In this document: positions 284 to 18,513 of the stretch, in pieces | How the letters are laid out: each line of letters begins with the position of its first letter | Position numbering within the stretch: position 1 is the stretch's first letter | Assembly: GCF_002305895.1 (NCBI RefSeq) | Contig: NZ_CP022203.1 | Location: 2,210,501 to 2,274,500 of the forward strand | DNA length: 64,000 bases | Direction: 5' to 3' | DNA from: Corallococcus macrosporus DSM 14697 | Lineage (GTDB): Bacteria > Myxococcota > Myxococcia > Myxococcales > Myxococcaceae | The notes under the pieces: model-generated | What the model saw: the letters and a program-made list of their open reading frames with translations, nothing else | Database searches by the model: none | Told to the model about the DNA's origin: nothing | Program-made: the position numbers and the translations under genes

Positions 284-886
284 CTACTGTCCTTCGAGGA
301 ACTCGTCCTCCATGCGCTTCTCGTTGAGCTCATGCTGGGACTGGGGCATGGCGGCCTTTATGTCGTCGAGTTCTTCCGGGCTGAGGCGCGGCAACGTGCG
401 GATGAGCCCGACGAGGGCCCAGCTGTCGTTGTTGCCCGCGTCGTCGTGGGCTTGCCCCCAGGCGGGCATACCCGTCAGCCGGATGCCGTTCTGGATGATC
501 CAGTACAGCTCGCCATCGCTCAGGTCTTGGGTCGGGGCCGCGCGCATGTCGGGGGGGCGTGGATAGAGCCCTTGCCCGATGGGTGTCTGTCCGCTGCCGT
601 CCGCCGCGTGGCAGATGGCGCAGTGGTCACCCCAGTGCGCGCGCGCGTTGGCGAGCGCCTGCGACGGGAGGGGAATGAGCGGATTCTTCAGCTCCCGTGC
701 ACCCGCCGGCATGCTGAAGCTCCGTGCCGCACGTGCCACCTTTGCTTCGAGTGCCGAGGGCTCCTCCCGGGCCGAGAAGCCGCGGCGCGCCACGGCCAGC
801 CCATACACCCCGCCACCCACGCCCAGGACGAGCGCCAGGGCTCCTATCACGGCCAGCCCCCCCACTACGGTACGGCGCAAGGTCAC
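284..886 (-). CDS. Membrane-anchored monohaem cytochrome c
   Basis: A 200-residue c-type cytochrome. Residues 7-32 form one hydrophobic anchor without an obvious cleavage site, so the haem domain should sit on the periplasmic face. The haem site is CAICH (about residues 89-93) and the likely axial methionine is in RLTGMPAW (about residue 140), as in class I cytochromes. I chose the GTG at 886 rather than the longer TTG start at 913 because GAGGAG lies eight bases before it. The gene starts 37 bases after the copA stop and is likely co-transcribed with it. Small cytochromes next to copper ATPases may pass electrons for copper oxidation state control or may be metallated by the system; that link is inference. 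Confidence 0.85.
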   Translation of the reverse strand: MTLRRTVVGGLAVIGALALVLGVGGGVYGLAVARRGFSAREEPSALEAKVARAARSFSMPAGARELKNPLIPLPSQALANARAHWGDHCAICHAADGSGQTPIGQGLYPRPPDMRAAPTQDLSDGELYWIIQNGIRLTGMPAWGQAHDDAGNNDSWALVGLIRTLPRLSPEELDDIKAAMPQSQHELNEKRMEDEFLEGQ

Positions 887-922
887 TGCGTCTTCTCCTC
901 GTGAAGCTGACAAGAACGGTGG

Positions 923-3529: not shown

Positions 3530-3545
3530 AGCAACCTGGGGGCCA
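3530..3545 (-). promoter_or_regulatory. Sigma-54 promoter of copA
   Basis: Read on the minus strand this is TGGCCCCCAGGTTGCT. It matches the -24/-12 consensus (TGGCACG-N4-TTGCW), with GG and GC exactly 12 bases apart. Transcription would start near 3518, leaving a leader of about 127 bases before the copA ATG. The dyad at 3597-3617 lies about 90 bases upstream of that start, a normal enhancer distance. Confidence 0.72.
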
Positions 3546-3596
3546 GCCATGCCTGAGAGGTAAGTCCGCAGATCTGCTCAGGCGTGTCCCTTCACG

Positions 3597-3617
3597 GCGT
3601 AACCGGTGCTGTTACAC
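3597..3617 (-). promoter_or_regulatory. Probable response-regulator enhancer site upstream of copA
   Basis: On the plus strand this is GCGTAA-N9-TTACAC, a variant of the GTGTRA-N9-TYACAC dyad found at four other places in this island. A further half-site, CGGTTACACCCGG at 3629-3641, lies 12 bases away and is repeated exactly at 17983-17995. Binding by the response regulator encoded at 5947-7347 is inferred from the shared motif and the sigma-54 promoter beside it. Confidence 0.65.
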
Positions 3618-3645
3618 CTCGATGATGTCGGTTACACCCGGTTTG

Positions 3646-3950
3646 CGAACCGCACGGGCGCGCTGGAACATGAGGGCCTGTCAGAACCGCTCCCGCATCT
3701 CCCGATGGCGTGAAGAGCTGGGCGGAACCTACCGCTCCTGGTTCCTCTGGGAGGAGCGCCTGAAGAACTTCTGCTCCATCCACCGCGGCTTGGCGACGGT
3801 GGTGGAGGATATAGAGAAGGGCACCTTCGGCAACGTGTACAAGGGGACGGAGAGTTGGAGCGCCACCGAGAGGCGATGGGTTGCTTCGGGCAGGGGCTCA
3901 CGGCCGTCGAGGCGGTGGCTTGCCGCCTCCATCACTGAGTGTGTGCGGCC
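3646..3950 (+). pseudogene. Possible relic of a coding sequence between copA and the DUF305 gene
   Basis: The interval between copA and the DUF305 gene is more than 500 bases long. On the plus strand, about 3718-3860 translates into a protein-like stretch (WEERLKNF, then VVEDIEKGTFGNVYKG) with normal composition. Reading on in the same frame gives low-quality arginine- and serine-rich sequence, and there is no convincing start. I take it as a fragment left from an older gene, but cannot name the family. The left end of the interval holds the copA promoter and dyad; the rest shows nothing else. Confidence 0.2.
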
Positions 3951-3953
3951 CCG

Positions 3954-4550
3954 CTACGGCTGGCTGCCGTACCAGGCCTTGCGCCAGGCAATCATCTGCC
4001 CAATCTCCTCTGCCTGTGCGTCAATGATTCTGCGGGCAAGGGTGCGGATCTCCGCGATGCTGCTCCGCCGCAGCGCGACGGCTGCCATCTGAATGGCCCC
4101 CGAGTGGTGCGGCATCATCGAGTCGATGAACGCCTTGTCGACATCAGGCTGCTGCGCAAGCTCGTTGGGCATCAGCATTCCGCTGTTCTGCATCTCCGAC
4201 TCGCTCATCATGGTCGGCACGTCCGAGGAGCCGAAGTGGGCCTGCTTGAGGGCCTTCAGTTCGTCGATCTCCTGGCGCTGATCCTGAATCATCTTCGTCG
4301 CCAGTGCCCGGAGCTCCTGGCGCGTCCCTCGCTGCTCCTCGACAATGGCCATCTCGGTGGCCATCTGGTGGTGGGCGGCCATCATGTCGATGAACCGCTC
4401 GTCGGAGTAGTTGCCGTCCACAACGAGCTGTTCGGGGGCGACGCCATCGCCCATGGACATGCTATGGGAACTTGGCTCGTCGTCTCCGCAGCCTGCCACC
4501 ACTGCGAGGAAGACGACCGCCAGGGCACGGCACATCATAGGGGAGCTCAT
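3954..4550 (-). CDS. DUF305-family lipoprotein
   Basis: A 198-residue protein with a lipoprotein signal peptide ending in VVAGC, so the mature protein should be tethered to a membrane by the cysteine near residue 21. After a short Met/His linker (HSMSMGDG) come the two halves of the DUF305 fold, each with the family's Met/His pattern: MMAAHHQMATEMA and MMPHHSGAIQMA. DUF305 proteins are ferritin-like helical proteins often found in copper clusters; direct copper binding is plausible from the Met/His clusters but unproven here. No clear ribosome site precedes the ATG at 4550, and ATG codons four and five codons downstream are alternatives. No sigma-54 promoter is visible in the 206 bases upstream. 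Confidence 0.88.
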   Translation of the reverse strand: MSSPMMCRALAVVFLAVVAGCGDDEPSSHSMSMGDGVAPEQLVVDGNYSDERFIDMMAAHHQMATEMAIVEEQRGTRQELRALATKMIQDQRQEIDELKALKQAHFGSSDVPTMMSESEMQNSGMLMPNELAQQPDVDKAFIDSMMPHHSGAIQMAAVALRRSSIAEIRTLARRIIDAQAEEIGQMIAWRKAWYGSQP

Positions 4551-4756
4551 ATGTTCGCAGCCTCCAGGACCGACGTCCCGTACGCCTCGGCGAGCCGGGG
4601 CACCGGGAACACTCGCAGGACCGGAAGCTGAGCACGGTGCAGTTCCATGTCAGCTGTGAGCGGCGAGGTTACAGCCCTGGCCCGCGAGGCTTGCTTACGC
4701 GGTTTGGCGAACTCGCGCGCACTGCGACTTCAGGCCAGGGCTGCTGTTGGAAGGAG

Positions 4757-5791
4757 TCAGTGCTCGCGGAAGACGAGGCCGTTGGGCTTGGTGCCCACCG
4801 TGAGCGTCTTTCGGATGGTGCGCGAGGCGACGTCCACAACGCTGAGCGTCCCCGCTGTCTGGTTGGTGACGAAGGCGGTGGCACCGTCGGAAGAGAAGGT
4901 GATGCCATGTGCGCCGGCGCCAGTGGCGAGTTCCCCCTGGCGCGTCGTGGTGCCCGCGGCGAAGAAGATGAGCTTGCCGTTGTCAGTGTCCGTCACCCAG
5001 AGGTCACCGTTGGGAGCCGTGGCGGCCATGGCCGGCGTGAATCCCAGTGCGTAGATGCGCGCGACCTCAAGCGTCCCGGAGTTGATAGCGGTCAGGCTTT
5101 TCCCGTCCTCGTTGTCCACGTACATGAGGCCGTCGTTCCCCGGCCAGGCCCCCACGGGGTTGGCACCGACGGGCACTGTCTTCACTACCGCTTTAGTCAC
5201 AGCGTCGATGACAGTGACGCTGTTTGAGTCACCGTTTGCGACGAACGCATACCGCCCATCCTGTGAGAACGTCACCTCCGCGGGCAATGCCCCCACGGTG
5301 ACCGTCTGCTTCGGTTCCAGCGTCCGGCTGTCGAGTACGACGACCGCGCCCGGCTCCGCCATCAACGCCGTCCAGACTTCGGTGCCGTCTGATGAGAAGG
5401 CGCCGTTGTGGGGCATCGCGTCGAACTGCCGCACGGCCCGGGTCTCACCCGTCTTGGCGTCCAGGAGGAGGACTTTGCCCGGCATGGTGTGGCCCGCGTG
5501 GCCGCCGCCGTGCCCTTCACTCAGGTCCATTCCAGGGACGGCCACCACGAGCGAGGTCCCATCTGGGCTCAGGTTGACGTGGTGCGGATATGTCACCGCG
5601 TCCAGTTGGAGGGTACTCGCAACCTCCAACCGCTCCGCGTCGATGACGCTGAGGGAGTGGCTCCCACCATTCACGACGAAGATGACGTCCTTCTCGGCGG
5701 AGGGGAAGGTGTTCAAGTCGTCATCGCAGCCGCTCATGGTCAGTAATGCCAAGGAAGGGAGTGCCCACAGAGTTCGCTTGAGGAGTTCCAT
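4757..5791 (-). CDS. YVTN-type beta-propeller lipoprotein
   Basis: A 344-residue lipoprotein (signal peptide ending in LTMSGC) made of repeats of the YVTN/lactonase-like propeller. Typical blades are FVVNGGSHSLSVIDAERL, FVANGDSNSVTVIDAVTKA and FVTNQTAGTLSVVDVASR, each followed by a variant of the GTKPNG or GANPVG turn. A His-rich loop (EGHGGGHAGHTMPG, near residue 115) could hold copper. Such propellers are common beside copper oxidases, where they may act as metal chaperones or scaffolds; the exact role is unknown. It is 206 bases upstream of the DUF305 gene on the same strand. The 155 bases between it and the response regulator gene contain an AT-rich patch but no recognisable sigma-54 site. 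Confidence 0.85.
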   Translation of the reverse strand: MELLKRTLWALPSLALLTMSGCDDDLNTFPSAEKDVIFVVNGGSHSLSVIDAERLEVASTLQLDAVTYPHHVNLSPDGTSLVVAVPGMDLSEGHGGGHAGHTMPGKVLLLDAKTGETRAVRQFDAMPHNGAFSSDGTEVWTALMAEPGAVVVLDSRTLEPKQTVTVGALPAEVTFSQDGRYAFVANGDSNSVTVIDAVTKAVVKTVPVGANPVGAWPGNDGLMYVDNEDGKSLTAINSGTLEVARIYALGFTPAMAATAPNGDLWVTDTDNGKLIFFAAGTTTRQGELATGAGAHGITFSSDGATAFVTNQTAGTLSVVDVASRTIRKTLTVGTKPNGLVFREH

Positions 5792-5946
5792 CAGTCGAGC
5801 CTTTCGGAATGACCGCGTGATGAGTCAGGTCATGGGAGGGTCAATAAATGTGTTCCATGTGCTATTGCAACTGTGTTTCTATTTTATCTCTGCCGTGGCG
5901 TTGAAGGGAGGGGCGAGGCGTTCCTTGACGTGCGTGGGCTGGACGT

Positions 5947-7343
<1,397 letters not shown>

Positions 7344-7347
<4 letters not shown>

Positions 7348-8840
7348 GGAGTACTCCGGGGGAGATGCAGGGTGAACTCCGCGCCCCGTCCGGGAAGATT
7401 GCGCGGCTGGATATGGCCTCCATGGGCTTGAGCGATGGCCTGCGATACGGCCAGCCCCAGCCCGGTGCCTTGAGGCTTGGTGGTGAAGAAGGGCTCGAAG
7501 AGTCGCTCGTGCGCTTCAGGAGTAAGGCCCGACCCAGTGTCGCTGACAGAAAGCGCCACCTCGCCTTCTCGCGCGTGGATGGCCACCTTCACCTGCCCCG
7601 AGGGTCTCGCGGCCTCCACGGCGTTCTTGACAAGATTGGTGACCACTTGGCGAAGCCGCTGCGGGTGGCCGGCCACCTGGGCGTCGCCCTCCACCGTCAG
7701 GGAAACGTCGGAGAGCTGGATGGACTCCCGTAGCCGGGAGATGACTTCCTCTACCAGCTCTCGCAGCGCCAGCGTCTCCCCCGGAACTTGGAGCGGTCGT
7801 GACAGGTCGAGCAGCCCCTCCACGATGTCACGGCAGCGCAGCGTCTCCTCTTCGATGATGCGCAAGTCGTCCGCCAGCGCACCTTCCGCCTTGCGTTGAA
7901 GCAGACGCACGTAGCCGAGGATGACACCCAGGGGGTTGTTGATTTCATGCGCCACACCCGCTGCGAGGCGGCCAATGCCCGCCAGCCTCTCGCTGTGCAC
8001 GAGGCGCTCCTGGTGCTCACGAAGCGCGGCGGTCATTCGGTTGAACTGTTGCGCCAGCCTTCCGAACTCGTCCGGGCGGTCCAGCGCGATGCGGGTGGTA
8101 AGGTCGCCCGCAGCGATACGGGCCGCGCCGGCCTCCAGCAAGGAGACTGGGCGGGCCACCGAACGGCCAATGTAGAGGCCCACGCCGACGGCGAGGAGGG
8201 CCGCAGCGGCCAGGATTGCGAGCGTCCATCGGAAACTGGCGTGTTGAACCGTGCTCGCGTGCTCCTCGAAATTCCCAATAGCGCGCTCGTAGTGCGAAGC
8301 CAGGGTGTCAGCGCTCTCCTGGATGACGCCGACCAACTCCAGTGCCCGGGCGTGCTCGCGGACCGCCGTGTCGCGGTCCCTCCGCAGTACAGCGGGCACA
8401 AATGCCTCTCGGAAGAGCAGGTCCAGCTCCGCCGTGGTGCGGCGGATTGTGTCCACCTGGGCTTGCTCAGCGGGGGTATCCGCCTGGGCCTGGACCTCAT
8501 CGAGGAGCGCTAGTGCGCGGCGATGGGCGCCGTCGTAGAGCGGCAGGTGGCTGGCGTTGCCGAGGATGAGGGTATGCGCCAGGTGCGCGTAGATGTCCCG
8601 CACCGCGGTCGCCAGCGACAGCGTGGTACGCACGGCGGTTTCCTGCCGCCTCACGCTGTGCAGCGCCTCGTGAATCTCTGCCATGCCCTCGAGCGCAGCG
8701 TAGGCCGCCGCGCCGAAGGCCAGGACGAGGAGCGAGAAGGCGTATAGGAGCCTGCGAGCGGTTCCAGACACAACATCCCCCAGCGAACGAGAGCTGGGGA
8801 TTAGCAATCGACGGGCCAACGCGTCGTTCGCTTTAAACAC
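7344..8840 (-). CDS. Membrane histidine kinase paired with the sigma-54 regulator
   Basis: A 498-residue sensor kinase. Two membrane segments (about residues 32-52 and 205-228) flank a periplasmic, helix-rich sensing region of about 150 residues. They are followed by a HAMP linker (RPVSLLEAGAARIAAGDL), the HisKA phospho-acceptor box AGVAHEINNPLG, the N box NLVKNAVEA, and the G boxes SDTGSGL and GTGLGLAV of the ATPase domain. The GTG at 8840 has AGGAG nine bases upstream. No sensor motif for copper is evident. A 21-bp dyad of the shared type lies 50 bases before the start, which suggests autoregulation, although no -24/-12 promoter is visible here. Confidence 0.93.
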
Positions 8841-8889
8841 CTGAATTTACTCCTGCCCAGGCTTCGTTCTCGTTGGTGAGAGGGGTGGG

Positions 8890-8910
8890 GTGTGATTGAT
8901 AAGGTCACAC
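8890..8910 (-). promoter_or_regulatory. Dyad operator before the kinase/regulator operon
   Basis: GTGTGA-N9-TCACAC, with perfect six-base arms and the same nine-base spacing as the site upstream of cusC. It sits between the oxidase gene end and the kinase start. No sigma-54 promoter could be found nearby on either strand, so the site may work on an ordinary promoter, perhaps as feedback control. Confidence 0.6.
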
Positions 8911-8986
8911 TGTGATGAGCCGGGAGACCCGATTCCAGACTTGGCTCAGAGGGATTTTTCGGTGCGTGGGCCGCCGTGTAGAGGGC

Positions 8987-10429
8987 TCATTGGGAGTCCT
9001 CCGCGCGGACATCCACCAACGTCATCATCCCGGACTCGGCGTGTTCCTGGATGTGGCAGTGGAGCATCCACGCCCCCACGTCCTGCGGGAACATCGCGAC
9101 GTCCACCGTCTCTCTCGGTCCGATGAGCACCGTGTCGCGCCAGTGCCCCTCGTCCACGGGGGTGCCGTCGCGCGCCACCACGCGGAAGAACTGGCCATGC
9201 ACGTGCATGGGGTGCAGGCGGTAGGACTCATTGACGAAGCGCAGCTTGGCCCACTGGTACGCAGGGAGCCGGTAGACTCGGTGGTGTGCGGAGGCATGCT
9301 CCCCCTCGTGCCGGAAGGCCTCGTCATTGATGGTCCACTCGATGCCAAAGGGGCCTCCCTGCCTGGCGTTCAGTCGGAAGGTTTCCGAGGGGGGCAGTGC
9401 GCGCGCCGTGGCGAGGTGGGGGGCCGGCATCGTGGCCGCTTCAGTCTTCGCGGGCGGCGACACCGCCTCTCCAGATACCGCCAGCGTGGCGAGAAGGAAC
9501 GGCCTGCGTGTGAAGCGGTCCACCACCTCCAGCCGCTGCCCGCTCAGCGCCTCGGGGACGATGAAGTCCAGGTCGACGCGGTTGCCCGGAGCGAGTTCCA
9601 GGCGGGAGGCAGGCAGCGGCCGGTCGGTTGCCAGCGCGTCGACTGCGATGACAGATGCGTCCAGTCCGTCGAAGGAAGGCGCGAATACACGCCCATTGGC
9701 GACGTTGACCAGCCGCAGGCGCACCCGCTCGCCGGGCCGCAGCGCGACCTCTGGCTGGGAAACCCCGTTTACCGTTGAAACTTGGCCCCATCGGCCGTCG
9801 TGCGCGAGGTCGTGGCGCGTGTTGAATCGGGCATCGACCTGGCCACTCGTGTCGAGGCGCCAGTCGTCGAGCACCCAGACGAGCTCGCGTGTGAAGAGCC
9901 TGGGTTCCCGGTCTTCCACGATGAGGACACCGAAAAGCCCGCGCTCAACCTGCTCGCTCCCTCGCAGGTGCGGGTGGAACCAGAACGTGCCTGCATCCTT
10001 CAACTTGAACTCGTAGACGAAGGTGTCCCCGGGCGGGATGGGGGGCTGTGTCACCCCGGGCACGCCGTCCATCCCGTTTGGAAGCCGGATGCCGTGCCAG
10101 TGAATGGTCGTGGGTTGCGGCAGCTTGTTGGTGAAGCGCACCCGGACCGTGTCCCCTTGGTTGGCGCGGAGGGTGGGGCCGGGCACCTGGCCGTTGTATG
10201 CCCAGACCTCCAGACTCCTCCCATCCAGGAGCGGTAGGACGGTTGGGGCCGCGACGAGTTCGAACTCGCGCACGTGGCCCGTGGATGGGACGTCCTCCGG
10301 GTAGGGCGATGCGGAGCGCGGCTGCCGGGCCGGCGTCCCGGCATCATCCTTCTGGCCGAGACTGACTGCCGCGAGCACGGCGAGGAAAGCAACGAGAGCC
10401 GCCCCGATGAGCCATGGATTGCGATGCAT
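8987..10429 (-). CDS. Multicopper oxidase, cuproxidase type
   Basis: A 480-residue three-domain multicopper oxidase that should oxidise Cu(I) or organic reductants in the periplasm with O2. An uncleaved-looking or cleavable hydrophobic segment is at residues 6-25. The four copper-binding motifs are all present: HWHGIRLPNG, FWFHPHLRG, HPMHVHGQ and the type 1/type 3 signature HCHIQEHAESGMM, whose last methionine is the usual axial residue. The ATG at 10429 has GGAAG close upstream. The gene follows cusA by 114 bases on the same strand, with only a weak inverted repeat between them, so it may be the last gene of the cusC-cusB-cusA transcript or have its own weak promoter. Confidence 0.92.
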   Translation of the reverse strand: MHRNPWLIGAALVAFLAVLAAVSLGQKDDAGTPARQPRSASPYPEDVPSTGHVREFELVAAPTVLPLLDGRSLEVWAYNGQVPGPTLRANQGDTVRVRFTNKLPQPTTIHWHGIRLPNGMDGVPGVTQPPIPPGDTFVYEFKLKDAGTFWFHPHLRGSEQVERGLFGVLIVEDREPRLFTRELVWVLDDWRLDTSGQVDARFNTRHDLAHDGRWGQVSTVNGVSQPEVALRPGERVRLRLVNVANGRVFAPSFDGLDASVIAVDALATDRPLPASRLELAPGNRVDLDFIVPEALSGQRLEVVDRFTRRPFLLATLAVSGEAVSPPAKTEAATMPAPHLATARALPPSETFRLNARQGGPFGIEWTINDEAFRHEGEHASAHHRVYRLPAYQWAKLRFVNESYRLHPMHVHGQFFRVVARDGTPVDEGHWRDTVLIGPRETVDVAMFPQDVGAWMLHCHIQEHAESGMMTLVDVRAEDSQ

Positions 10430-10543
10430 AAAGTTCTTCCAAGAATGAAGGATTTAGACGCCCTCGCTCCGCATCCATATACGAGCGGGGAGGGGCGCAA
10501 GGCCGCCTAGGCAGAGCAGCCTGGCCGGCCCTGGCGGAGAGGG

Positions 10544-13500
10544 TTATGCAGGAAGCGCGGCAGTGCCGGGGACTTCGGCCTCGGGGGTCGCCGGGCCTGG
10601 CACCACCTCGCGGCGCTTCCAAAGGAAGTAGACGGCCGGGTAGACGAGCAGCTCCAGTAGGAAGCTCGTGGCTAGGCCGCCCACCATGGGCGCCGCAATG
10701 CGCTTCATCACGTCCGCGCCCGTTCCAGTGGACCACATGATGGGGAGTAGGCCCAACATCGCCGCCATGACCGTCATCGCCTTGGGTCGCACGCGCTTCA
10801 CGGCCCCGTGAATGATGGCCTCCACCAGGTCGCCCTCGGTGCGCAGCATCCCGCGCTTCTTCGCCTCGTCATGGGACAGGTCGAGGAAGAGCAGCATGAA
10901 GGCGCCGGTCTCCGCGTCCAGTCCCATCAGGGCAATCATGCCCACCCACACCGCGATGGAGACGTTGTAGTCGAGCGCCCAGAGCAGCCACACCGCGCCG
11001 ATGGCCGAGAAGGGCACCGCCAGCATCACCAGGCCCGCCTTGAAGGCCGACTTCGTGTTCATGTACAGCAACCCGAAAATCAACACGAGCGTGAGCGGGA
11101 TGACCAACTGGAGCCTCTCCCTGACGCGCAGCATGTTCTCGTACTGCCCGCTCCACGTCATGGAGTAGCCGGCGGGCACCTTCACGTCCGCGGCCACCGC
11201 CTCCTTCGCACGCTCCACGAAACTGCCCACGTCGTACTTCGACGTGTCGAAGTCCACGTAGACGTAGCCGGTGAGCATGCCGTTCTCATTGCGAATCATT
11301 GAGGGACCGTGAGCGAGCACCACGTCCGCGATGGCTTCCATGGGAATCTGGCCTTGGCCACCAGGAAGGGGCAGCAGCACGCGCTTGAGCGCTTGGAGGT
11401 CCTCGCGGTAGTCCCGCGCGTAGCGCACGTTGATGCCGTAGCGCTCACGCCCCTCCACGGTGGTGGACTGGTTGTCGCCCCCCACTGCGGTCATCACCAT
11501 CATGTTTGCGTCGTCCACGCTCAGGCCGTAGCGGGCGAGCTCGTCGCGCTTGAGGACGAAGTCCAGGAAGTAGCCTCCGGCCACGCGCTCTGCGAACGCG
11601 CTTCGGGTGCCCTCCACCCGGGCTACCGCGGCCTCCGTCTCGCGCGCAATCCGCTCCACGGTGGCCAGATCCGCGCCCATGATTTTGATGCCTACGGGCG
11701 TGCGGATGCCGGTGCTTAGCATGTCCAACCTGCCCTTGATGGGCATGGTCCACGCATTGGAGATGCCCGGCAGTTGGAGCGCGGCGTTCATCTCCGACTC
11801 CAGCTGCGCCTGGGTGATGCGGTCACTCCAGAAGGGGCGCAAAAGGCCCTTTAGCCACTCGGGAGCCCATCCGCTGTACCAGCGCGGCACCTCGCGCCAC
11901 TCGGACTCCGGACGCAGCAGTACCGTGGTCTCCATCATGGTGAATGGCGCGGGGTCGGTGGAGGTGTTGGCGCGGCCAGCCTTGCCGAAGACGCGCTCCA
12001 CCTCGGGGAAGCGCATGAGCAGCTTGTCCTGGACCTGCAAGACGCGCTGGGCCTCGGTGACGGACATGCCGGGCTCCACTGCGGAGGGCATGTAGAGGAT
12101 GGTGCCCTCGTTGAGCGGTGGCATGAACTCGCTGCCCAGTTGCAGGTACACGGGGATGCTAGTGGCAACCAGCAGCACGCTCACGACGAGGGTGGCCTTG
12201 GCGTGGCGCACCACGAAGCGGCAGGGGCCCTCGTAGATGCGGTGCATTAGCCGGCTGATTGGGTGCCGCTCCTCCGAGTAGTACTTGCCCACCAGAGCCG
12301 AGGTCGCCACCGACGCCAAGAACCTCGGGCGGAAGCGGAAGGGCTCCACCCGCGCGAAGAGCATCCGCATTGCGGGGTCCAGGGTAATGGCCAGCAGCGC
12401 GGCGATGGCCATGGCCAGGTTCTTCGAGTACGCCAGGGGGCGGAAGAGACGGCCTTCCTGGTCCACCAACGTGAAGATGGGCATAAAGGCCACGGCGATG
12501 ACGAGCAGGCTGAAGAAGACGCCCGGCCCCACCTCCATCAGCGCTTCCAGTCGCACCTGGTGGAAGTCGCCCTTTTTCCCGTCCTTTATCCAATGGTGGA
12601 TTTTGTTGTACGCGTTCTCCACCTCGACGATGGCGCCGTCCACGAGCACGCCGATGGAGATGGCGATTCCGGCCAGCGACATGAGGTTGGCGTTCAACCC
12701 CATCGCGTACATAGGAATGAAGGCCAGCGCCACCGACACGGGAATCGTGACGATGGGCACGAGGGCTGAAGGCACGTGCCACAGGAAGATGAGGATGATG
12801 ATTGAAACGATGATGATTTCCTCCACCATCTTGTGCGTCACCGTGCTGATGGCGCGCTCGATGAGGTCCGAACGGTCGTAGGTGGTGACGACCTCCACGC
12901 CCTCGGGCAGCGAAGGCTTGAGCTCCTCAAGCTTCGCCTTGACGCGCTCAATGACGTTGAGGGCGTTCTCTCCCTGGCGCATCACCACGATGCCCCCTAC
13001 GGCGTCTCCCTCTCCGTCCAGGTCGGCCACGCCACGGCGCAGCTCGGGGCCCAACGTCACGCTGGCCACGTCCTTGACGGTGACGGTGGTGCCTCCCTGG
13101 GCTTTGAGGACGAGCTTCTCGATGTCCTCAACGTTCTTCACGTAGCCACGGCCACGGACCATGTACTCGCGTCCAGCCACCTCCACGAGCCGTCCACCCA
13201 CGTCATTGTTGCCCTGACGGACGGCGCGCACCACCGCGTCCAGCGACAGTCCATAGCTGGCTAGCGTGTTGGGGTTGACTGTCACCTGGTACTGGCGCAC
13301 TTGGCCGCCCACGGTGGCCACCTCGGAGACGCCCGGCACGCTCTGGATGGCGTAGCGCAGGAACCAGTCCTGGTAGGAGCGCAGCTCGTCCAGCCGATGC
13401 TTGCCGCCCTTGTCCACGAGCGCGTACTGGAACACCCAGCCCACGCTGGTGGCGTCCGGGCCCAGCTCCACTTTCACATCCTGCGGAAGCTGGGGCGTTA

Positions 13501-13846
13501 TCTTAGACAGGTACTCGAGCACCCGCGTTCGTGCCCAGTACATGTCTGTGCCATCCTCGAAGATGACGTACACGTAGCTGAAGCCGAAGTCGCTGAAGCC
13601 ACGCACCGCCTTGACCTTCGGGGCGCCCAATAGCGCGGTGGTAATAGGGTAGGTGACCTGGTCCTCAATGATGTCCGGACTGCGGTCCCACCGCCCGTAG
13701 ACGATGACCTGGGTGTCGGACAAGTCAGGCAGCGCGTCCAGCGGCATATTCCGCATGGTCCACCACGCGCCGATGAGCGCCACCACGGTGGCTGCGATGA
13801 CCAGGTACTTGTTCTCGGCCGAGAATCGGATGATGGCGCGAATCAT
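10544..13846 (-). CDS. cusA: CusA/CzcA-family heavy-metal RND efflux pump
   Basis: A 1100-residue inner-membrane proton/metal antiporter of the HME-RND class, about the usual length for CusA/CzcA (1030-1100). The N-terminal membrane helix is followed by the typical porter start (NMPLDALPDLSDTQVIVYG). The fourth transmembrane helix has GVLVDGAIVEVENA, the family's conserved acidic proton-relay region, and two large periplasmic loops lie between helices 1-2 and 7-8. The C-terminus is short and Pro/Glu-rich. It lies five bases after the cusB stop and should form a trans-envelope complex with the adaptor and outer membrane channel encoded upstream. Neighbouring copper genes point to Cu(I)/Ag(I) rather than Zn/Co/Cd, but the substrate is inferred. 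Confidence 0.94.
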   Translation of the reverse strand: MIRAIIRFSAENKYLVIAATVVALIGAWWTMRNMPLDALPDLSDTQVIVYGRWDRSPDIIEDQVTYPITTALLGAPKVKAVRGFSDFGFSYVYVIFEDGTDMYWARTRVLEYLSKITPQLPQDVKVELGPDATSVGWVFQYALVDKGGKHRLDELRSYQDWFLRYAIQSVPGVSEVATVGGQVRQYQVTVNPNTLASYGLSLDAVVRAVRQGNNDVGGRLVEVAGREYMVRGRGYVKNVEDIEKLVLKAQGGTTVTVKDVASVTLGPELRRGVADLDGEGDAVGGIVVMRQGENALNVIERVKAKLEELKPSLPEGVEVVTTYDRSDLIERAISTVTHKMVEEIIIVSIIILIFLWHVPSALVPIVTIPVSVALAFIPMYAMGLNANLMSLAGIAISIGVLVDGAIVEVENAYNKIHHWIKDGKKGDFHQVRLEALMEVGPGVFFSLLVIAVAFMPIFTLVDQEGRLFRPLAYSKNLAMAIAALLAITLDPAMRMLFARVEPFRFRPRFLASVATSALVGKYYSEERHPISRLMHRIYEGPCRFVVRHAKATLVVSVLLVATSIPVYLQLGSEFMPPLNEGTILYMPSAVEPGMSVTEAQRVLQVQDKLLMRFPEVERVFGKAGRANTSTDPAPFTMMETTVLLRPESEWREVPRWYSGWAPEWLKGLLRPFWSDRITQAQLESEMNAALQLPGISNAWTMPIKGRLDMLSTGIRTPVGIKIMGADLATVERIARETEAAVARVEGTRSAFAERVAGGYFLDFVLKRDELARYGLSVDDANMMVMTAVGGDNQSTTVEGRERYGINVRYARDYREDLQALKRVLLPLPGGQGQIPMEAIADVVLAHGPSMIRNENGMLTGYVYVDFDTSKYDVGSFVERAKEAVAADVKVPAGYSMTWSGQYENMLRVRERLQLVIPLTLVLIFGLLYMNTKSAFKAGLVMLAVPFSAIGAVWLLWALDYNVSIAVWVGMIALMGLDAETGAFMLLFLDLSHDEAKKRGMLRTEGDLVEAIIHGAVKRVRPKAMTVMAAMLGLLPIMWSTGTGADVMKRIAAPMVGGLATSFLLELLVYPAVYFLWKRREVVPGPATPEAEVPGTAALPA

Positions 13847-13851
13847 GGGCT

Positions 13852-15282
13852 TCAGTGGCCTCCGTGGCCGGAGGCGGCTGGGGAAGCACTCGCCGGAGGC
13901 GAGGAGGAAGACGCCGCCGTGCCGTCTCCGGATGAAGAGGCGGCCAGCGCAGCCAGCGATGCGCGCAGGCGGGACTCGGAGTCGACGAGGAAGTTGGCGC
14001 CGGTGACAACCTGGTCGCCGACCTTCAGGCCCGACGTCACCTCCACACTCTTTCCATCCGACTCGCCCAGGTGGACCTCGCGGGGCTGGAAGCGCCCGTC
14101 GCCGAGCGCCACGAAGACGACCTGGGTGGTGCCGGTGGGGACGACCGCGTCAGAGGGAATCTTCAGCGCGTTGCGCGTCGTGCCACGGAGCACCACCTCA
14201 CCGAACATCTCGGGGCGCAGGTCGCCGTCGGGGTTGGGGAACTCCAAGCGCACCTTGACGGTGCGCATCGCCGGGTCCAGCACCGGGTCGAGGAAGGCGA
14301 CCTTCCCGGCGAACACCCGATTAGGGAAGGCCTTGAGCTGGAGCGTGGCGGGCATGCCCACCTTCGCGTGGCGCAACTCGCTCTCGTACACGTCCGCGAG
14401 GACCCACACACGTGACAAGTCGACGACCTCGTAAGGCGTAGCGCCCAGTTCCAGGCGCGCTCCCTCGACGACGTCCTTCTTGGTGATGACGCCCGAGATG
14501 GGTGACACCAAGGTGAGAGTGCGGCTGGCCTCGCCCGTTTTAGCGAGCCGCTCCAGAGTCGCTGGCGGCACGTCCCACAGTTGCAGCTTGCGTCGAGCCG
14601 CCGCGACCAGCGCATCGCCATCCGTCGCCATCCCACCGGCCTGGCTCAGCGACTGGCGGGTGCGCAATGCCAGCAGGTACTCCTCCTGCGCGGCGAGCAG
14701 CTCAGGGCTGTAGACGGAGAAGAGCGGCTCTCCCTGGCGCACCGGCTTGCCGGTGAAGTCCGCGTACACTCGCTCGACGAAAGCAGCCACCTTCATGTTG
14801 ACGCGCCGCACGCGCGTTTCGTCTATTGCCACGCGGCCGTTGGTCCGCCAGGTGCCCCCAACCTTGCCTTCCGTCACCGGCGCGGTGCGCAGGCCGATAA
14901 GTTGCTGGCGCGAGGGGTCGATGGTGAAGGGCGCCAAGCCCTGCACCGCGGAGGGGCTTGGGTCGCCGGGAGTAGCCGGCGCAGGTGTCATGGGAACCAA
15001 GTCCATGCCGCAGATGGGGCACTTCCCCGGGTGGTCCTGCACGATGCTCGGGTGCATCGGGCACTGGTACTGGGTGGCCGCCGCCTTGGAGTCAGTTGGC
15101 GCGGGGGAGGACGAGGGGGGTGACGCGTGGGCGTCGTGCGCTTCATCCCCGTGCGCCAACAGGTGCACGGCGCCACCGCCGAGGACCGCGCTGGCCAGCG
15201 CCGTCGATGCGAGTGCGACGGCTCCGAAGCGGCGGCGAGAGGGGACTGGAGAGGATGGAGGAGGGGGATTCACGGGAGACAT
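13852..15282 (-). CDS. cusB: CusB-type periplasmic adaptor with N-terminal metal-binding module
   Basis: A 476-residue membrane fusion protein. After a Pro/Ser-rich N-terminus and one hydrophobic segment (FGAVALASTALASAVLG) comes a His-rich linker and a CPMHPS..PGKCPICGM metal-binding module, then the barrel-sandwich, alpha-hairpin and beta-barrel domains expected of RND adaptors (for example GVITKKDVVEGARLELG). The tail is Ser/Ala-rich and ends in a GHGGH motif. The ATG at 15282 is 13 bases after the cusC stop and has GAGG upstream; an in-frame extension to 15426 would run far into cusC and is unlikely. It should link the CusA pump to the CusC channel. Confidence 0.9.
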   Translation of the reverse strand: MSPVNPPPPSSPVPSRRRFGAVALASTALASAVLGGGAVHLLAHGDEAHDAHASPPSSSPAPTDSKAAATQYQCPMHPSIVQDHPGKCPICGMDLVPMTPAPATPGDPSPSAVQGLAPFTIDPSRQQLIGLRTAPVTEGKVGGTWRTNGRVAIDETRVRRVNMKVAAFVERVYADFTGKPVRQGEPLFSVYSPELLAAQEEYLLALRTRQSLSQAGGMATDGDALVAAARRKLQLWDVPPATLERLAKTGEASRTLTLVSPISGVITKKDVVEGARLELGATPYEVVDLSRVWVLADVYESELRHAKVGMPATLQLKAFPNRVFAGKVAFLDPVLDPAMRTVKVRLEFPNPDGDLRPEMFGEVVLRGTTRNALKIPSDAVVPTGTTQVVFVALGDGRFQPREVHLGESDGKSVEVTSGLKVGDQVVTGANFLVDSESRLRASLAALAASSSGDGTAASSSSPPASASPAASGHGGH

Positions 15283-15295
15283 GCGGGCCTCGGAA

Positions 15296-16780
15296 CTACA
15301 TTCCGGACATGGAGGAAGCAGGGGAAGGCGTGGCACCCGGAGTGCCACCCGACGGTGCGGTGCTGCGCGCGGGAGTGGACGGGGAGCTGCCCGCACCGGG
15401 CATGCCGCCCGAGCCCAGTCCTCCACCGGCGATGGACGCCACGGGCTCCAGGCTCACTTCGGCCTGGGCGATGGCGAGGCGGTGCGCTTCGACGAGCGTC
15501 CGCAGGAAGTCTTCTTCGTCGCGGACGATGCCGGTGTTGGCCTCCAGCACCGAGGCAAACGAGGCACGTCCGACCCGGTACTGTGTCAGGGTGCTTTCGG
15601 CGGTCGCTGCCGACTGCATCAAAATGCCACTACGGAAGAGGGCCACCGTGTCGCGCAATGCGGCCAGGGCAGTGATGCGCTCCAGTACTCGCAGACGCAG
15701 CACCTGCTCCACGGCCTCCTTGGCCCGGGTGGTGGCCTCGGCATTGGCGCTGCTCTCCGCCACCGCGCGGTTCTGCTTCCTCCCGGAGAAGATGGGCAGG
15801 GTGATGCCGACATTGGCCTGCCACATGGGTGGGAAGTTTCCTCCTCGGGGCATGACTCCCGCGCTCACGGTGAAGTCAGGCAGGCGCTCACGTCGCGCCA
15901 ACGCCACCTGCTGGCCGGCCTGCTCCACCGTCGCGTGTGCCTGAGCCAGCTCGGGGCTGCGCGCGAACGCATCCTTCGTCGCCGTCTCGGCGTCGCCGAA
16001 CTCCGGCACCCCCAGGTCGCGCACGCGCAGGGTCGTCGGCAGGGGCGCATCGAGTGCCCGGCCGCTCAGCCGATTCAGGGTCTGCGCCCGAGTGCGCTCC
16101 TCGGCATTCAGTGCCACCCGGCGCTGCCGCAGCCGGTTGAGCTCGAGCTGGGAGCGCAGCAGGTCAGATTGGGCGCCCTCACCGGCCTCGTAGCGGATAC
16201 GGGCTGTCTCGGCGGATTGCTTCCAGAGCGCCTCAAGCTGGTCCAACAGCATCAGTCGCTCGCGCGTCAGCAGCAGGTCAAGGTAGCCCCGGCGCACCTC
16301 GGCCTCGATAGATAGCCGTGCGCGCATGACTTGCGTCGACGCGGCCTTGGCTCCCAGCCGGGCGACCTCTGTGCGCAGTGCGCGCTTCCCCGGGAAGGGC
16401 ACTGCCTGGGAGGCCATGATGCTGTAGTAGCTGCCCTCCATTTCGCCAATCATGAGCTCGCCAAAGCCATCGTTCTGAATGCCCAGTTGAAGGACTGGGT
16501 CCGGCAGGGCACCTGCCTGCGGGACACGCTCTTGGGCTGCCTGGGCCTGTGCTTCGGCTTGGCGCAACTCTGGGCGCGCATCAATGGCTTCCGTGAGGAG
16601 TTGCGCGAGCGTCGCGTCCGTCGTGTCCGTCGCCAGGGCCGGTATAGAAGTGGCTCGCGCGGCCGGCGTGCGAGCGTCGTCTTGGGCCAGCGCCGCCACA
16701 GGAGAGAGCAGCGCAAATAAGAGGGCAACGTGCCTCATCGAGTCGCGTCGCCACGCAGAGGAAGGGGCTGGCTGGGACAT
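15296..16780 (-). CDS. cusC: CusC-type TolC-family outer membrane channel
   Basis: About 494 residues, an outer membrane efflux channel. A signal peptide (MRHVALLFALLSPVAALAQ) lies 15 codons into the reading frame chosen here. The body has the two repeated helical halves of TolC proteins, with the conserved MASQAVPFPGKR and ANVGITLPIFSG strands. The sigma-54 promoter at 16811-16826 should start the mRNA near 16800, so the longest possible start (16798) is excluded; ATG 16780 and ATG 16738, the latter starting exactly at the signal peptide, remain and neither has a clear ribosome site. The C-terminus is Gly/Pro-rich and ends in SSMSGM. It is the first gene of cusC-cusB-cusA. Confidence 0.9.
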   Translation of the reverse strand: MSQPAPSSAWRRDSMRHVALLFALLSPVAALAQDDARTPAARATSIPALATDTTDATLAQLLTEAIDARPELRQAEAQAQAAQERVPQAGALPDPVLQLGIQNDGFGELMIGEMEGSYYSIMASQAVPFPGKRALRTEVARLGAKAASTQVMRARLSIEAEVRRGYLDLLLTRERLMLLDQLEALWKQSAETARIRYEAGEGAQSDLLRSQLELNRLRQRRVALNAEERTRAQTLNRLSGRALDAPLPTTLRVRDLGVPEFGDAETATKDAFARSPELAQAHATVEQAGQQVALARRERLPDFTVSAGVMPRGGNFPPMWQANVGITLPIFSGRKQNRAVAESSANAEATTRAKEAVEQVLRLRVLERITALAALRDTVALFRSGILMQSAATAESTLTQYRVGRASFASVLEANTGIVRDEEDFLRTLVEAHRLAIAQAEVSLEPVASIAGGGLGSGGMPGAGSSPSTPARSTAPSGGTPGATPSPASSMSGM

Positions 16781-16810
16781 GTTGAAAGTTGATTGCACGA
16801 CGATGGTGAT

Positions 16811-16826
16811 TGCAGCGCCTGTGCCA
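16811..16826 (-). promoter_or_regulatory. Sigma-54 promoter of the cus operon
   Basis: On the minus strand this is TGGCACAGGCGCTGCA. The -24 element TGGCAC is perfect and the -12 element CTGCA differs from TTGCW in one base, with GG and GC 12 bases apart. Transcription should begin near 16800. The dyad at 16919-16939 lies about 130 bases upstream. Confidence 0.8.
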
Positions 16827-16918
16827 TGCGCAGTGCCCTGCGGGTGTGGCGGACCGCAGGGGAGAACCGGACTCCATCTGCTCGTAGGTCCGATGAAGCC
16901 GGAGCCCGAGGAGTTACG

Positions 16919-16939
16919 GTGTGACTTCGAGAATCACAC
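16919..16939 (-). promoter_or_regulatory. Enhancer-type dyad upstream of the cus promoter
   Basis: GTGTGA-N9-TCACAC; the symmetry extends outward to eight-base arms (CGGTGTGA / TCACACCG, 16917-16941). Position and form suit an NtrC-type activator site for the cus operon. It is the best conserved of the five dyads in the island. Confidence 0.75.
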
Positions 16940-17188
16940 CGCGACGTGTGTGCCGCGACGATGCAGGGTTGCTTTCGGGAGGACGTCTTCTTCCGGCTCA
17001 GTTCGTCCCGGTGTAGTTGCTGCCAATGCACGAGCGCGAGGAGGGCATCCCACTGGGGCGCGTGAATCGGGCGGGCGGGCTGGCGACGGAGACTGAGGCA
17101 CTGCCGCGCTCGCTCCGACGACTTCTTGCTGCGTTGGCGGCGAGCCGTAGCGCGGCCCCACGGGAGGCTCACGCCACGGCGCGACAGG

Positions 17189-17638
17189 CTACTGGATGGT
17201 GACGAGCCCGCTGATGTGGTCCATCGCGCAGGCGTAGCGCAGCGTGCCCGACTCGCTGGGTACGAACTCCACAGTCACCGGCGTGTTCAGGGGAAGCGGC
17301 TGATTGATGCCCAGGTCGGCCGCAACGAGTTCCGTAGCGCACGTCTTGTCTGTCTTGCGGGTGACCACGAGGCGGACCGGGTGCCCCGCCTTCACCTTCA
17401 CGTTCGCGGGCTCAAAGCCCTTGGTTGTCACCGCGAGTTCGACAGTCTGGATACCGTTTTTGACGGTCGGGGAGGTAGAGGGCTTTTCCGTAGATGCAGT
17501 CCCAGTTGCGCCTCCGTGCGCGGCATGTTTGGACTGCTTGGTGGGCTCAGCCTGCTTTGCGTGCTCGGCACATGCGGCCGCCGGTGTGGCGACGATTAGG
17601 GCGAGGGGAGCGAGGGCTCCCATCAGGCGCATCTTCAT
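17189..17638 (-). CDS. Exported cupredoxin-like copper protein
   Basis: A 149-residue periplasmic protein with a signal peptide (MKMRLMGALAP..., cleaved around ATPAAACA), a His/Lys-rich linker (HAKQAEPTKQSKHAAHG) and a C-terminal cupredoxin domain. Candidate metal ligands are the cysteine in KTCATELV and the cluster YACAMDHISG. The small single-domain form resembles cupredoxin_1 proteins from copper and iron uptake or resistance loci. I chose ATG 17638 because the promoter at 17706-17721 would start transcription near 17694, which rules out the longer frame from 17743, and GGGAGA lies about ten bases upstream. It is divergent from the lipoprotein operon at 18091. Confidence 0.85.
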   Translation of the reverse strand: MKMRLMGALAPLALIVATPAAACAEHAKQAEPTKQSKHAAHGGATGTASTEKPSTSPTVKNGIQTVELAVTTKGFEPANVKVKAGHPVRLVVTRKTDKTCATELVAADLGINQPLPLNTPVTVEFVPSESGTLRYACAMDHISGLVTIQ

Positions 17639-17705
17639 CGGCTGGTTTCTCCCGGAGTGAGGATGCCCTCGTGACGTGTGGCATCCTGTTGGTACGGTTC
17701 GCTGG

Positions 17706-17721
17706 AGCACAATGCGTGCCG
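17706..17721 (-). promoter_or_regulatory. Sigma-54 promoter of the cupredoxin gene
   Basis: Minus strand CGGCACGCATTGTGCT. The -24 part is CGGCACG (one mismatch), the -12 part GTGCT (one mismatch), and the spacing of GG and GC is exactly 12. A start near 17694 gives a leader of about 56 bases. Confidence 0.62.
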
Positions 17722-17793
17722 GGCGCTGAACGCACCTCTTCATGCGGGGTTACCGGGGAGAGGCTCCTTGTCAGAGTACCCAAACGGGTTTCC

Positions 17794-17814
17794 CCGTAAC
17801 CGGCCTGGTTACGG
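17794..17814 (-). promoter_or_regulatory. Dyad operator for the cupredoxin gene
   Basis: CCGTAA-N9-TTACGG, a perfect palindrome in its six-base arms, with the nine-base spacer of the other sites. It contains GTAACCGG as does the copA site. It sits about 110 bases upstream of the predicted start of the leftward transcript. Confidence 0.62.
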
Positions 17815-17970
17815 ATGAAACGTTCAATCAGGGCGTTCAATCGAAGCGTCACAGCCCCCGGCTCGTTAGGAGCCGCTGTGTCCGCATAGGCCAATTCCGG
17901 ACTCAAGCGGGCCGCCAAGAGGGCCGCCAACCGTCAAACCGTGAGCCTCACGGCCCTCTCTAGCTTGGCA

Positions 17971-17991
17971 GTGTGATGACGCCGGTTACAC
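17971..17991 (+). promoter_or_regulatory. Dyad operator for the rightward lipoprotein operon
   Basis: GTGTGA-N9-TTACAC, intermediate between the TCACAC and TTACAC variants seen elsewhere, which shows the two forms are one motif. The right half lies in CGGTTACACCCGG, identical to the copA half-site. Its centre is about 68 bases before the predicted start of transcription. Confidence 0.68.
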
Positions 17992-18021
17992 CCGGCACGG
18001 GCCTTCGGTCTGAGAGCAGGC

Positions 18022-18037
18022 TGGCTTGGCCGTTGCT
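18022..18037 (+). promoter_or_regulatory. Sigma-54 promoter of the lipoprotein operon
   Basis: Plus strand TGGCTTGGCCGTTGCT: GG and GC 12 bases apart and a perfect TTGCT at -12. Transcription should start near 18049, 42 bases before the ATG at 18091. Confidence 0.75.
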
Positions 18038-18090: not shown

Positions 18091-18513
18091 ATGCGCAGAA
18101 CCCTCTGTGTGCTGGCGAATACCCTTTTCTTGGCGGCTTGCGTCTCCGAGCCGAAGAGGCTGCCCGCCTCGATGGATCCGTCGAATCCGGATGCCCCCGA
18201 GGCCCCGTCTGCTGCGCTGCCAACCGCATTCACGGCCCCCACTCCGGAAGTGCCCGCGCCCGGCAATGAATCAGAAGGAGCGGAGCATGCCCACCATGGG
18301 GCATCCTCTCCGGTCGCCGCCCCGGATGCAGGCGCCACCGTTTACACGTGTCCGATGCACCCGGAGGTGCGGTCCCGTAAGCCGGGTACTTGCCCCAAGT
18401 GCGGCATGAAGTTGGTGCCGGAGAACCCAGCGGGTTCGGAGGCCGCAGACGCGGGGCAGTCAGGCCCCGCTCCATCGGGCCATAACCATGGGCGTGGAGG
18501 GCCTCCTCCGTGA
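18091..18513 (+). CDS. Lipoprotein with a heavy-metal-binding module
   Basis: A 140-residue lipoprotein: the signal peptide ends in FLAAC (cysteine 17), followed by a long Pro/Ala/Glu-rich spacer with a HAHH cluster, then one copy of the [15 protein letters not shown] module (about residues 88-110). The tail is Gly/His/Pro-rich. The same module occurs in CopA (twice) and CusB (once) of this island, so it probably binds Cu in the periplasm or at the outer membrane. It is first in a three-gene rightward operon under a sigma-54 promoter; its stop overlaps the GTG of the next gene. Confidence 0.85.
   Translation: MRRTLCVLANTLFLAACVSEPKRLPASMDPSNPDAPEAPSAALPTAFTAPTPEVPAPGNESEGAEHAHHGASSPVAAPDAGATVYTCPMHPEVRSRKPGTCPKCGMKLVPENPAGSEAADAGQSGPAPSGHNHGRGGPPP

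What the first reader, a model, noticed from the sequence alone, without database searches (positions are those of the whole stretch)
3530..18037. One sigma-54 copper regulon with five copies of a new dyad, GTGTRA-N9-TYACAC
Seen: four promoters with perfect 12-base GG/GC spacing (3530-3545, 16811-16826, 17706-17721, 18022-18037). Five 21-base dyads (3597, 8890, 16919, 17794, 17971) share six-base arms and a nine-base spacer, and four of them lie 65-130 bases upstream of these promoters. Known: NtrC-type regulators bind such dyads and need sigma-54. Inferred: the local kinase/regulator pair drives copA, cus, the cupredoxin and the second oxidase operon. The dyad before the kinase gene has no -24/-12 box, so autoregulation may use another sigma factor.
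Basis: partly seen in the sequence, partly recalled or inferred. Interest (0 to 1): 0.75.

Follow-up and report, generated by a model that had tools for sequence, protein, structure and literature searches.

The report
CorR operator of a σ54 copper regulon
The repeated 21-base palindromes are real and conserved, and they mark where a known type of copper-sensing activator (CorR, described in Myxococcus xanthus) most likely sits to switch on five copper-defence promoters; the circuit is known, but its DNA address has not been reported in the papers I could search.

Summary
All five dyads are where stated. The exact motif occurs three times in the 8.97-Mb genome, all in this window. A fourth has one arm mismatch; the fifth (17794) matches only 8 of 12 arm bases but is conserved. 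The claim that the kinase-gene dyad lacks a −24/−12 box is wrong: TGGCCCGTCGATTGCT lies at 8818–8803 (−), 71 bp from the dyad, so all five dyads have a σ54 box. The gaps (30, 51, 71, 72, 92 bp) form a ladder of about 21 bp, i.e. one helical face. The module is conserved in related myxobacteria. Spacer N9 gives 25 hits at CorR loci; other spacers give 0–1. Presence of CorR and dyad is correlated across 145 genomes, and in one genus both dyad and σ54 box are usually absent where CorR is absent. The cluster is orthologous to the known M. xanthus curA/CorSR operon, whose copper induction needs CorSR. I conclude the dyad is the CorR enhancer site, inferred and not footprinted. A sixth conserved dyad (4654–4674) has no σ54 box. 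This is a known kind of system, with a newly defined operator.

The parts
3597..3617 (-). CorR dyad upstream of copA: GTGTAACAGCACCGGTTACGC (gene strand); a weaker GTGTAACC half-site abuts it at about 3638-3618
   Evidence: aligned in five relatives
3530..3545 (-). sigma-54 -24/-12 box of copA, TGGCCCCCAGGTTGCT, 51 bp from the dyad
923..3391 (-). copA, P1B copper ATPase with HMBD/YHS domains; likely ATG at 3391 (ORF listed to 3409)
   Evidence: Pfam; start
284..913 (-). cbb3-type cytochrome c subunit III-like protein (orthologue of curA gene H)
   Evidence: Pfam; order as in M. xanthus
3954..4550 (-). DUF305 lipoprotein (curA gene F)
4654..4674 (-). sixth dyad, CTGTAACCTCGCCGCTCACAG (gene strand), upstream of DUF305; no sigma-54 box within 150 bp
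   Evidence: conserved in all aligned relatives
4757..5791 (-). beta-propeller protein (position of curA gene E)
5947..7347 (-). CorR: receiver (D54), sigma-54 AAA+ (GAFTGA at 219), Fis-type HTH with ERESLHRLLKRYG
7344..8771 (-). CorS: membrane histidine kinase (HAMP, HisKA, HATPase); likely start GTG 8771, downstream of its sigma-54 box
8890..8910 (-). CorR dyad upstream of corS, GTGTGACCTTATCAATCACAC (gene strand)
   Evidence: conserved
8987..10429 (-). cuoA-type multicopper oxidase
   Evidence: 84-91% matches in relatives
10544..13846 (-). CusA-type RND pump
   Evidence: Pfam
13852..15426 (-). CusB-type periplasmic adaptor with HMBD domain
   Evidence: Pfam
15296..16780 (-). CusC-type outer-membrane efflux protein, likely ATG 16780
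   Evidence: Pfam; start
16811..16826 (-). sigma-54 box of the cusCBA operon, TGGCACAGGCGCTGCA, 92 bp from the dyad
16919..16939 (-). CorR dyad upstream of cusC, GTGTGATTCTCGAAGTCACAC (gene strand)
   Evidence: same 92-bp gap in L193 and L200
17189..17638 (-). cupredoxin (curA gene A), likely ATG 17638
17706..17721 (-). sigma-54 box of the cupredoxin gene, CGGCACGCATTGTGCT, 72 bp from the dyad
17794..17814 (-). divergent-arm CorR dyad CCGTAACCAGGCCGGTTACGG (gene strand); relatives have CTGTGACC-N5-GGTTACAG
17971..17991 (+). CorR dyad upstream of the HMBD-OEP-MCO2 operon, GTGTGATGACGCCGGTTACAC
18022..18037 (+). sigma-54 box of the HMBD-OEP-MCO2 operon, TGGCTTGGCCGTTGCT, 30 bp from the dyad
18091..18513 (+). 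HMBD (heavy-metal-binding) lipoprotein, first gene of the operon
18510..20018 (+). outer-membrane efflux protein (OEP)
19981..21501 (+). second multicopper oxidase (MCO2, cuoB-like)
   Evidence: 58% to the MCO in the cuoB position of M. xanthus-type clusters

Best explanation
The 21-bp dyad (refined: GTGTGACC-N5-GGTCACAC; arms GTGTRA/TYACAC, spacer exactly 9) is the enhancer site of the NtrC-type response regulator encoded at 5947-7347, the orthologue of M. xanthus CorR. Under copper, membrane kinase CorS phosphorylates CorR at D54. CorR dimers bind the dyad, assemble on one face of the helix, and their AAA+/GAFTGA domain opens sigma-54 RNA polymerase at five promoters: copA, corSR (positive autoregulation), cusCBA-cuoA, the cupredoxin gene, and the divergent HMBD-OEP-MCO2 operon. 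Shown here: the dyads, sigma-54 boxes, phased spacing, conservation, and correlation with CorR. Shown elsewhere in M. xanthus: CorSR-dependent copper induction of the gene-A, cuoA and copA promoters. Inferred: direct CorR binding, phosphorylation, transcription starts, and copper as signal in this species.
For: Genome-wide, exact dyads occur only in this window. At 20 CorR loci spacer 9 gives 25 hits (17 distinct), other spacers 3-17 give 0 or 1. A relative (L193, CorR 94%) has all five dyad+box pairs with gaps 30/50/72/72/92, against 30/51/71/72/92 here. Over 145 genomes of the order, exact dyad and CorR (62% identity or more) co-occur (41/4/32/68, Fisher p=1e-11; within the family 38/3/9/46, p=1.5e-14); 70 dyads against 6 for the backward control. 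In genus g6 CorR is unlinked to the OEP operon, yet 10/10 CorR+ genomes have dyad plus sigma-54 box at a fixed 73-bp gap, while 4/5 CorR-negative genomes have the OEP gene without either. Gaps are phased at 10.5 bp (R=0.94, n=7 promoter families, p about 1e-4). The HTH helix ERESLHRLLKRYG is shared by CorR proteins from distant families and differs (DRSNFRRLLKQYE) in the ~49% outgroup regulator of dyad-free genomes. Gene order equals M. xanthus curA, where deletion of corSR abolishes or strongly reduces induction. RpoN is present.
Against: No binding or expression data for this dyad or species. 32 CorR+ genomes have no exact dyad (many carry 1-2-mismatch versions). G072 has the dyad but no detected CorR of this class. 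The sixth dyad has no sigma-54 box, so not every conserved copy fits the simple model. The 17794 site has poor arms in this genome. Promoter families for the phasing test were grouped by hand. Co-occurrence counts are not corrected for phylogeny.
Confidence: 0.9

Rival explanations
1. The dyad is bound by a different dimeric regulator (for example a CRP/FNR-like or MerR-type protein), and CorR acts elsewhere in these promoters.
For: The arms resemble the CRP half-site TGTGA (own knowledge); no footprint exists.
Against: Spacer is 9, not CRP's 6, and is strictly 9. The dyad tracks CorR across genomes and is lost with it, and sits at phased enhancer distances from sigma-54 boxes. CRP-type factors do not activate sigma-54 promoters this way (own knowledge).
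Confidence: 0.06
2. CorR binds the dyads but some of the promoters (notably corS and the 17706 box) are really sigma-70/ECF promoters; the sigma-54 boxes are chance matches.
For: Box counts in the window are at chance level. M. xanthus copA also has a CorE (ECF) promoter.
Against: Boxes are conserved with fixed gaps to the dyad, while surrounding sequence is diverged. CorR has a complete AAA+/GAFTGA module.
Confidence: 0.05
3. The five dyads are recent duplications of one promoter segment or chance palindromes, without shared regulation.
For: They lie within 14.5 kb.
Against: Spacer and flank sequences differ between the five sites, gaps differ by about two helical turns, and unlinked copies elsewhere control the same class of gene.
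Confidence: 0.01

Closest known systems
CorSR / curA operon of Myxococcus xanthus (Sanchez-Sutil et al. 2013, PMC3707914)
   Same: Same TCS, same order (cupredoxin, cuoA, corS, corR, lipoprotein, DUF305, copA, cbb3-III), sigma-54 promoters predicted upstream of A, B, corS and copA; copper induction CorSR-dependent for genes A, cuoA and copA.
   Different: cusCBA is inserted between cupredoxin and cuoA; a divergent HMBD-OEP-MCO2 operon is added under the same dyad; gene E position here is a beta-propeller; the paper's text contains no 'binding site' for CorR.
CorE ECF copper regulon of M. xanthus (PMC3107203)
   Same: Copper-induced cuoB/copB/copA-type genes.
   Different: CorE is an ECF sigma factor with its own -35/-10 promoter; the window's cuoB-like operon instead carries the CorR dyad and a sigma-54 box. 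In M. xanthus-type genomes the HMBD-OEP-MCO2 orthologue has neither.
NtrC/glnA-type enhancers (bacterial enhancer-binding proteins)
   Same: Palindromic, often tandem sites upstream of sigma-54 promoters, helical-face dependence (own knowledge).
   Different: Different arm sequence and spacer; copper-efflux target genes.

Membership tests
CorSR/curA copper regulon | CorR: receiver + sigma-54 AAA+ (GAFTGA) + Fis-type HTH | tested here: met
CorSR/curA copper regulon | CorS: membrane histidine kinase with HAMP, next to corR | tested here: met
   N-terminal hydrophobic segment
CorSR/curA copper regulon | Gene order cupredoxin-cuoA-corS-corR-lipoprotein-DUF305-copA-cbb3 III | tested here: met
   (with cusCBA inserted)
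CorSR/curA copper regulon | sigma-54 promoters upstream of cupredoxin, corS and copA | tested here: met
   the cuoA promoter is here replaced by that of cusCBA (no separate box aligned before cuoA)
CorSR/curA copper regulon | CorSR-dependent, slow copper induction | not testable with these tools
   shown only in M. xanthus (PMC3707914)
NtrC-type enhancer / sigma-54 promoter pair | Inverted-repeat site upstream of GG-N10-GC | tested here: met
   all five dyads paired
NtrC-type enhancer / sigma-54 promoter pair | Cognate enhancer-binding protein correlated with site | tested here: met
NtrC-type enhancer / sigma-54 promoter pair | Direct binding of the activator to the site | not testable with these tools
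   needs footprinting
CRP/FNR site (TGTGA-N6-TCACA) | Spacer of 6 between TGTGA half-sites | tested here: not met
   spacer is 9; GTGTRA...TYACAC with N6-N8 gives 0 hits at CorR loci

The most novel reading that the evidence does not exclude
A single CorR operator, read through a rule of two-helical-turn steps (gaps about 30, 51, 72, 93 bp), defines copper-defence regulons across Myxococcota. Operons have been moved in and out of this regulon by promoter replacement (HMBD-OEP-MCO2 has it here but not in the M. xanthus type), and a conserved dyad without a sigma-54 box inside the operon (4654) has a second, non-promoter role such as a remote enhancer or roadblock.
Probability: 0.35. Interest if true: 0.6.

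Novelty: new member of a known kind. Interest (0 to 1): 0.45.

Why it matters
CorSR was known genetically in M. xanthus, but no CorR operator was found in the literature searched. A sequence-level operator makes the regulon predictable in any myxobacterial genome and adds cusCBA and a second oxidase operon to it. The ladder of gaps gives a sharp test of helical-face requirements in natural σ54 enhancers. The presence/absence pattern in genus g6 is a natural experiment on how an operon leaves a regulon when its activator is lost.

Tried and rejected
A relaxed 19-base pattern with 1 mismatch is too unspecific (121 hits against 79 control). The scan of genome contigs with CorR found only one close named relative (Corallococcus interemptor, 62%; the rest are 51% or less), so the unnamed order-wide genomes were used. 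Off-window 1-mismatch dyads were checked: only one (G000:C1:3634019) has a σ54-like box nearby, before a putative lipoprotein, not a copper gene; it is treated as chance. I considered CRP-type sites and rejected them on spacer. I looked for dyads before cuoA and before the beta-propeller gene: none convincing. I looked for a σ54 box at the sixth dyad: none conserved. I looked for tandem sites: the PWM score is raised at offset −20 and visible at copA, but not strong enough to claim for all five. CorE promoter motifs in this window were not tested, because their published consensus is in a figure not held.
Full report
What is there. The window is part of a single-contig 8.97-Mb genome (G000:C1:2210501-2274500). 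The first 21.5 kb hold a copper-defence cluster (Pfam). On the minus strand, in order of transcription: cupredoxin, cusC, cusB, cusA, a cuoA-type multicopper oxidase, a membrane histidine kinase, a response regulator, a beta-propeller protein, a DUF305 lipoprotein, a copA-type P1B ATPase and a cbb3-III cytochrome. Divergent on the plus strand: an HMBD lipoprotein, an outer-membrane efflux protein (OEP) and a second multicopper oxidase. Apart from the inserted cusCBA and the divergent operon, this is the order of the M. xanthus curA operon (MXAN_3421–3413), which contains and is controlled by CorSR (PMC3707914). The response regulator is therefore called CorR. It has D54 in the receiver, a GAFTGA motif and a Fis-type HTH, and the genome has one RpoN.

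Checking the dyads. All five coordinates are right. Exact GTGTRA-N9-TYACAC is found three times in the genome, all here. With one mismatch there are seven sites, four of them here, and the three outside equal the three hits of the backward-read control. A composition model expects 0.5 exact sites per genome and 0.0008 in this interval. The arms are perfect at 8890, 16919 and 17971, 11/12 at 3597 and 8/12 at 17794. A position weight matrix built from sites in relatives and from this window ranks these five plus 4654–4674 as the top six places in the 64 kb. The three perfect sites and 3597 exceed the best score seen in 30 Markov copies of the window (18.6); 4654 (16.3) and 17794 (15.0) do not, and rest on conservation.

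Checking the promoters. The four listed boxes are present. σ54 consensus matches as such are not enriched in the window (9 found, 11.3 expected), so the boxes need other support. The corS start is better placed at GTG 8771. The upstream ORF start at 8840 lies before this box, which may be why it was overlooked. Every one of the five dyads thus has a box downstream, with edge-to-edge gaps of 51 (copA), 71 (corS), 92 (cusC), 72 (cupredoxin) and 30 (HMBD operon). M. xanthus corS was also predicted to have a σ54 promoter and its lacZ fusion was copper-induced, so no other sigma factor need be invoked for autoregulation.

Conservation. CorR relatives were collected from 145 genomes of the order, and 20-kb loci were fetched. 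In the 20 first loci the dyad with spacer 9 gives 25 hits (17 distinct sequences); every other spacer from 3 to 17 gives 0 or 1. One relative (L193, CorR 94% identical) has all five dyad–box pairs with gaps 30, 50, 72, 72, 92. Alignments of the promoters show dyad and box conserved with fixed gaps while flanks drift. Clusters L125–L129 have the M. xanthus layout, including the divergent copper ATPase, OEP and MCO in the positions of copB, MXAN_3424 and cuoB. They carry the dyad–box pair before cupredoxin and corS, and in most of them before copA, so the published CorSR genetics applies to promoters that carry this dyad.

Linking dyad to CorR. Across the 145 genomes there are 70 exact dyads against 6 for the control pattern, and 42 of the 70 lie within 60 kb of a CorR gene. 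Presence of CorR and dyad is associated (41/4/32/68; Fisher p=1e-11; within the family p=1.5e-14), uncorrected for phylogeny. Of the unlinked dyads, a large group stands 72–74 bp from a good σ54 box before an OEP gene that matches the window's. In genus g6 all 10 genomes with both CorR and the OEP gene have this pair, while of five genomes with the OEP gene and no CorR, four lack both dyad and box (hypergeometric p=0.004, my arithmetic). The exception, G072, keeps both. Paralogous CorR proteins (about 65%) have dyads 20–70 kb away before another OEP-family gene, and share the recognition helix ERESLHRLLKRYG. The next-closest NtrC-type regulator, present in genomes without dyads, reads DRSNFRRLLKQYE.

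Geometry. Gaps cluster at 30, 50–52, 71–74, 82–84 and 92 bp. For seven promoter families of the home family (one per gene, grouped by hand) the phase at 10.5 bp is R=0.94 (p about 1e-4 against uniform gaps), and 10.5 is the best period. With 16 families including distant ones R=0.74. So the enhancer keeps one face of the helix towards the promoter. This is expected behaviour for enhancer-binding proteins at short range (own knowledge), but it is unusually clear here. Adjacent weaker half-sites are visible at copA (GTGTAACC directly upstream, conserved), and the mean score is raised at offset −20, suggesting tandem dimers.

What does not fit. A sixth dyad, CTGTAACC-N5-GCTCACAG, sits upstream of DUF305 in the relatives that keep that gene (and in L128, where no DUF305 match was found), with no σ54 box in this genome and none conserved. 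In the M. xanthus-type genomes the HMBD-OEP-MCO2 operon (OEP and MCO about 92% identical) has neither dyad nor box, and a different conserved upstream sequence. Its control has therefore been exchanged at least once.

Literature. Seven library searches found no CorR binding sequence. The CorSR paper contains no 'binding site'. The library lacks most subscription papers, so this is absence from what is held, not proof of novelty.

Verdict. The operator is real and most likely CorR's; the regulon is a member of the known CorSR kind with two extra operons. Direct binding, phosphorylation and copper response in this species remain inferred.

Noticed in passing
4654-4674: Sixth dyad, conserved in all aligned relatives upstream of DUF305, with no sigma-54 box; function unexplained.
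   Followed up: partly
L206, L207, L208 (upstream of HMBD-OEP-MCO2): In M. xanthus-type genomes and in a CorR-less relative the orthologous operon has no dyad or sigma-54 box but shares another conserved upstream sequence (CTGACAGTTTCAATGT...CCGGAG): a promoter swap.
   Followed up: partly
L130-L133, between cusA and corR: corR (84-85%) follows cusA directly with no corS match beside it; an orphan regulator or one served by a paralogous kinase.
   Followed up: no
L214 (G072): OEP operon keeps a perfect dyad and sigma-54 box although no CorR of this class was found in that draft genome.
   Followed up: partly
G000:C1:3634019-3634039 (L006), outside the window: One-mismatch dyad with a sigma-54-like box 54 bp away before a putative lipoprotein gene; possibly chance, possibly an extra regulon member.
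   Followed up: partly
L138 (dyad at 9065): In an order-level relative one dyad lies midway between two divergent sigma-54 boxes, 84 bp from each.
   Followed up: no
L160, L166, L167, L168, L176, L183, L186: Paralogous CorR genomes have a dyad 50-52 bp from a variant box GGTACG-N4-TTGCG; where checked (L166, L168) the gene behind it is an OEP-family efflux gene.
   Followed up: partly
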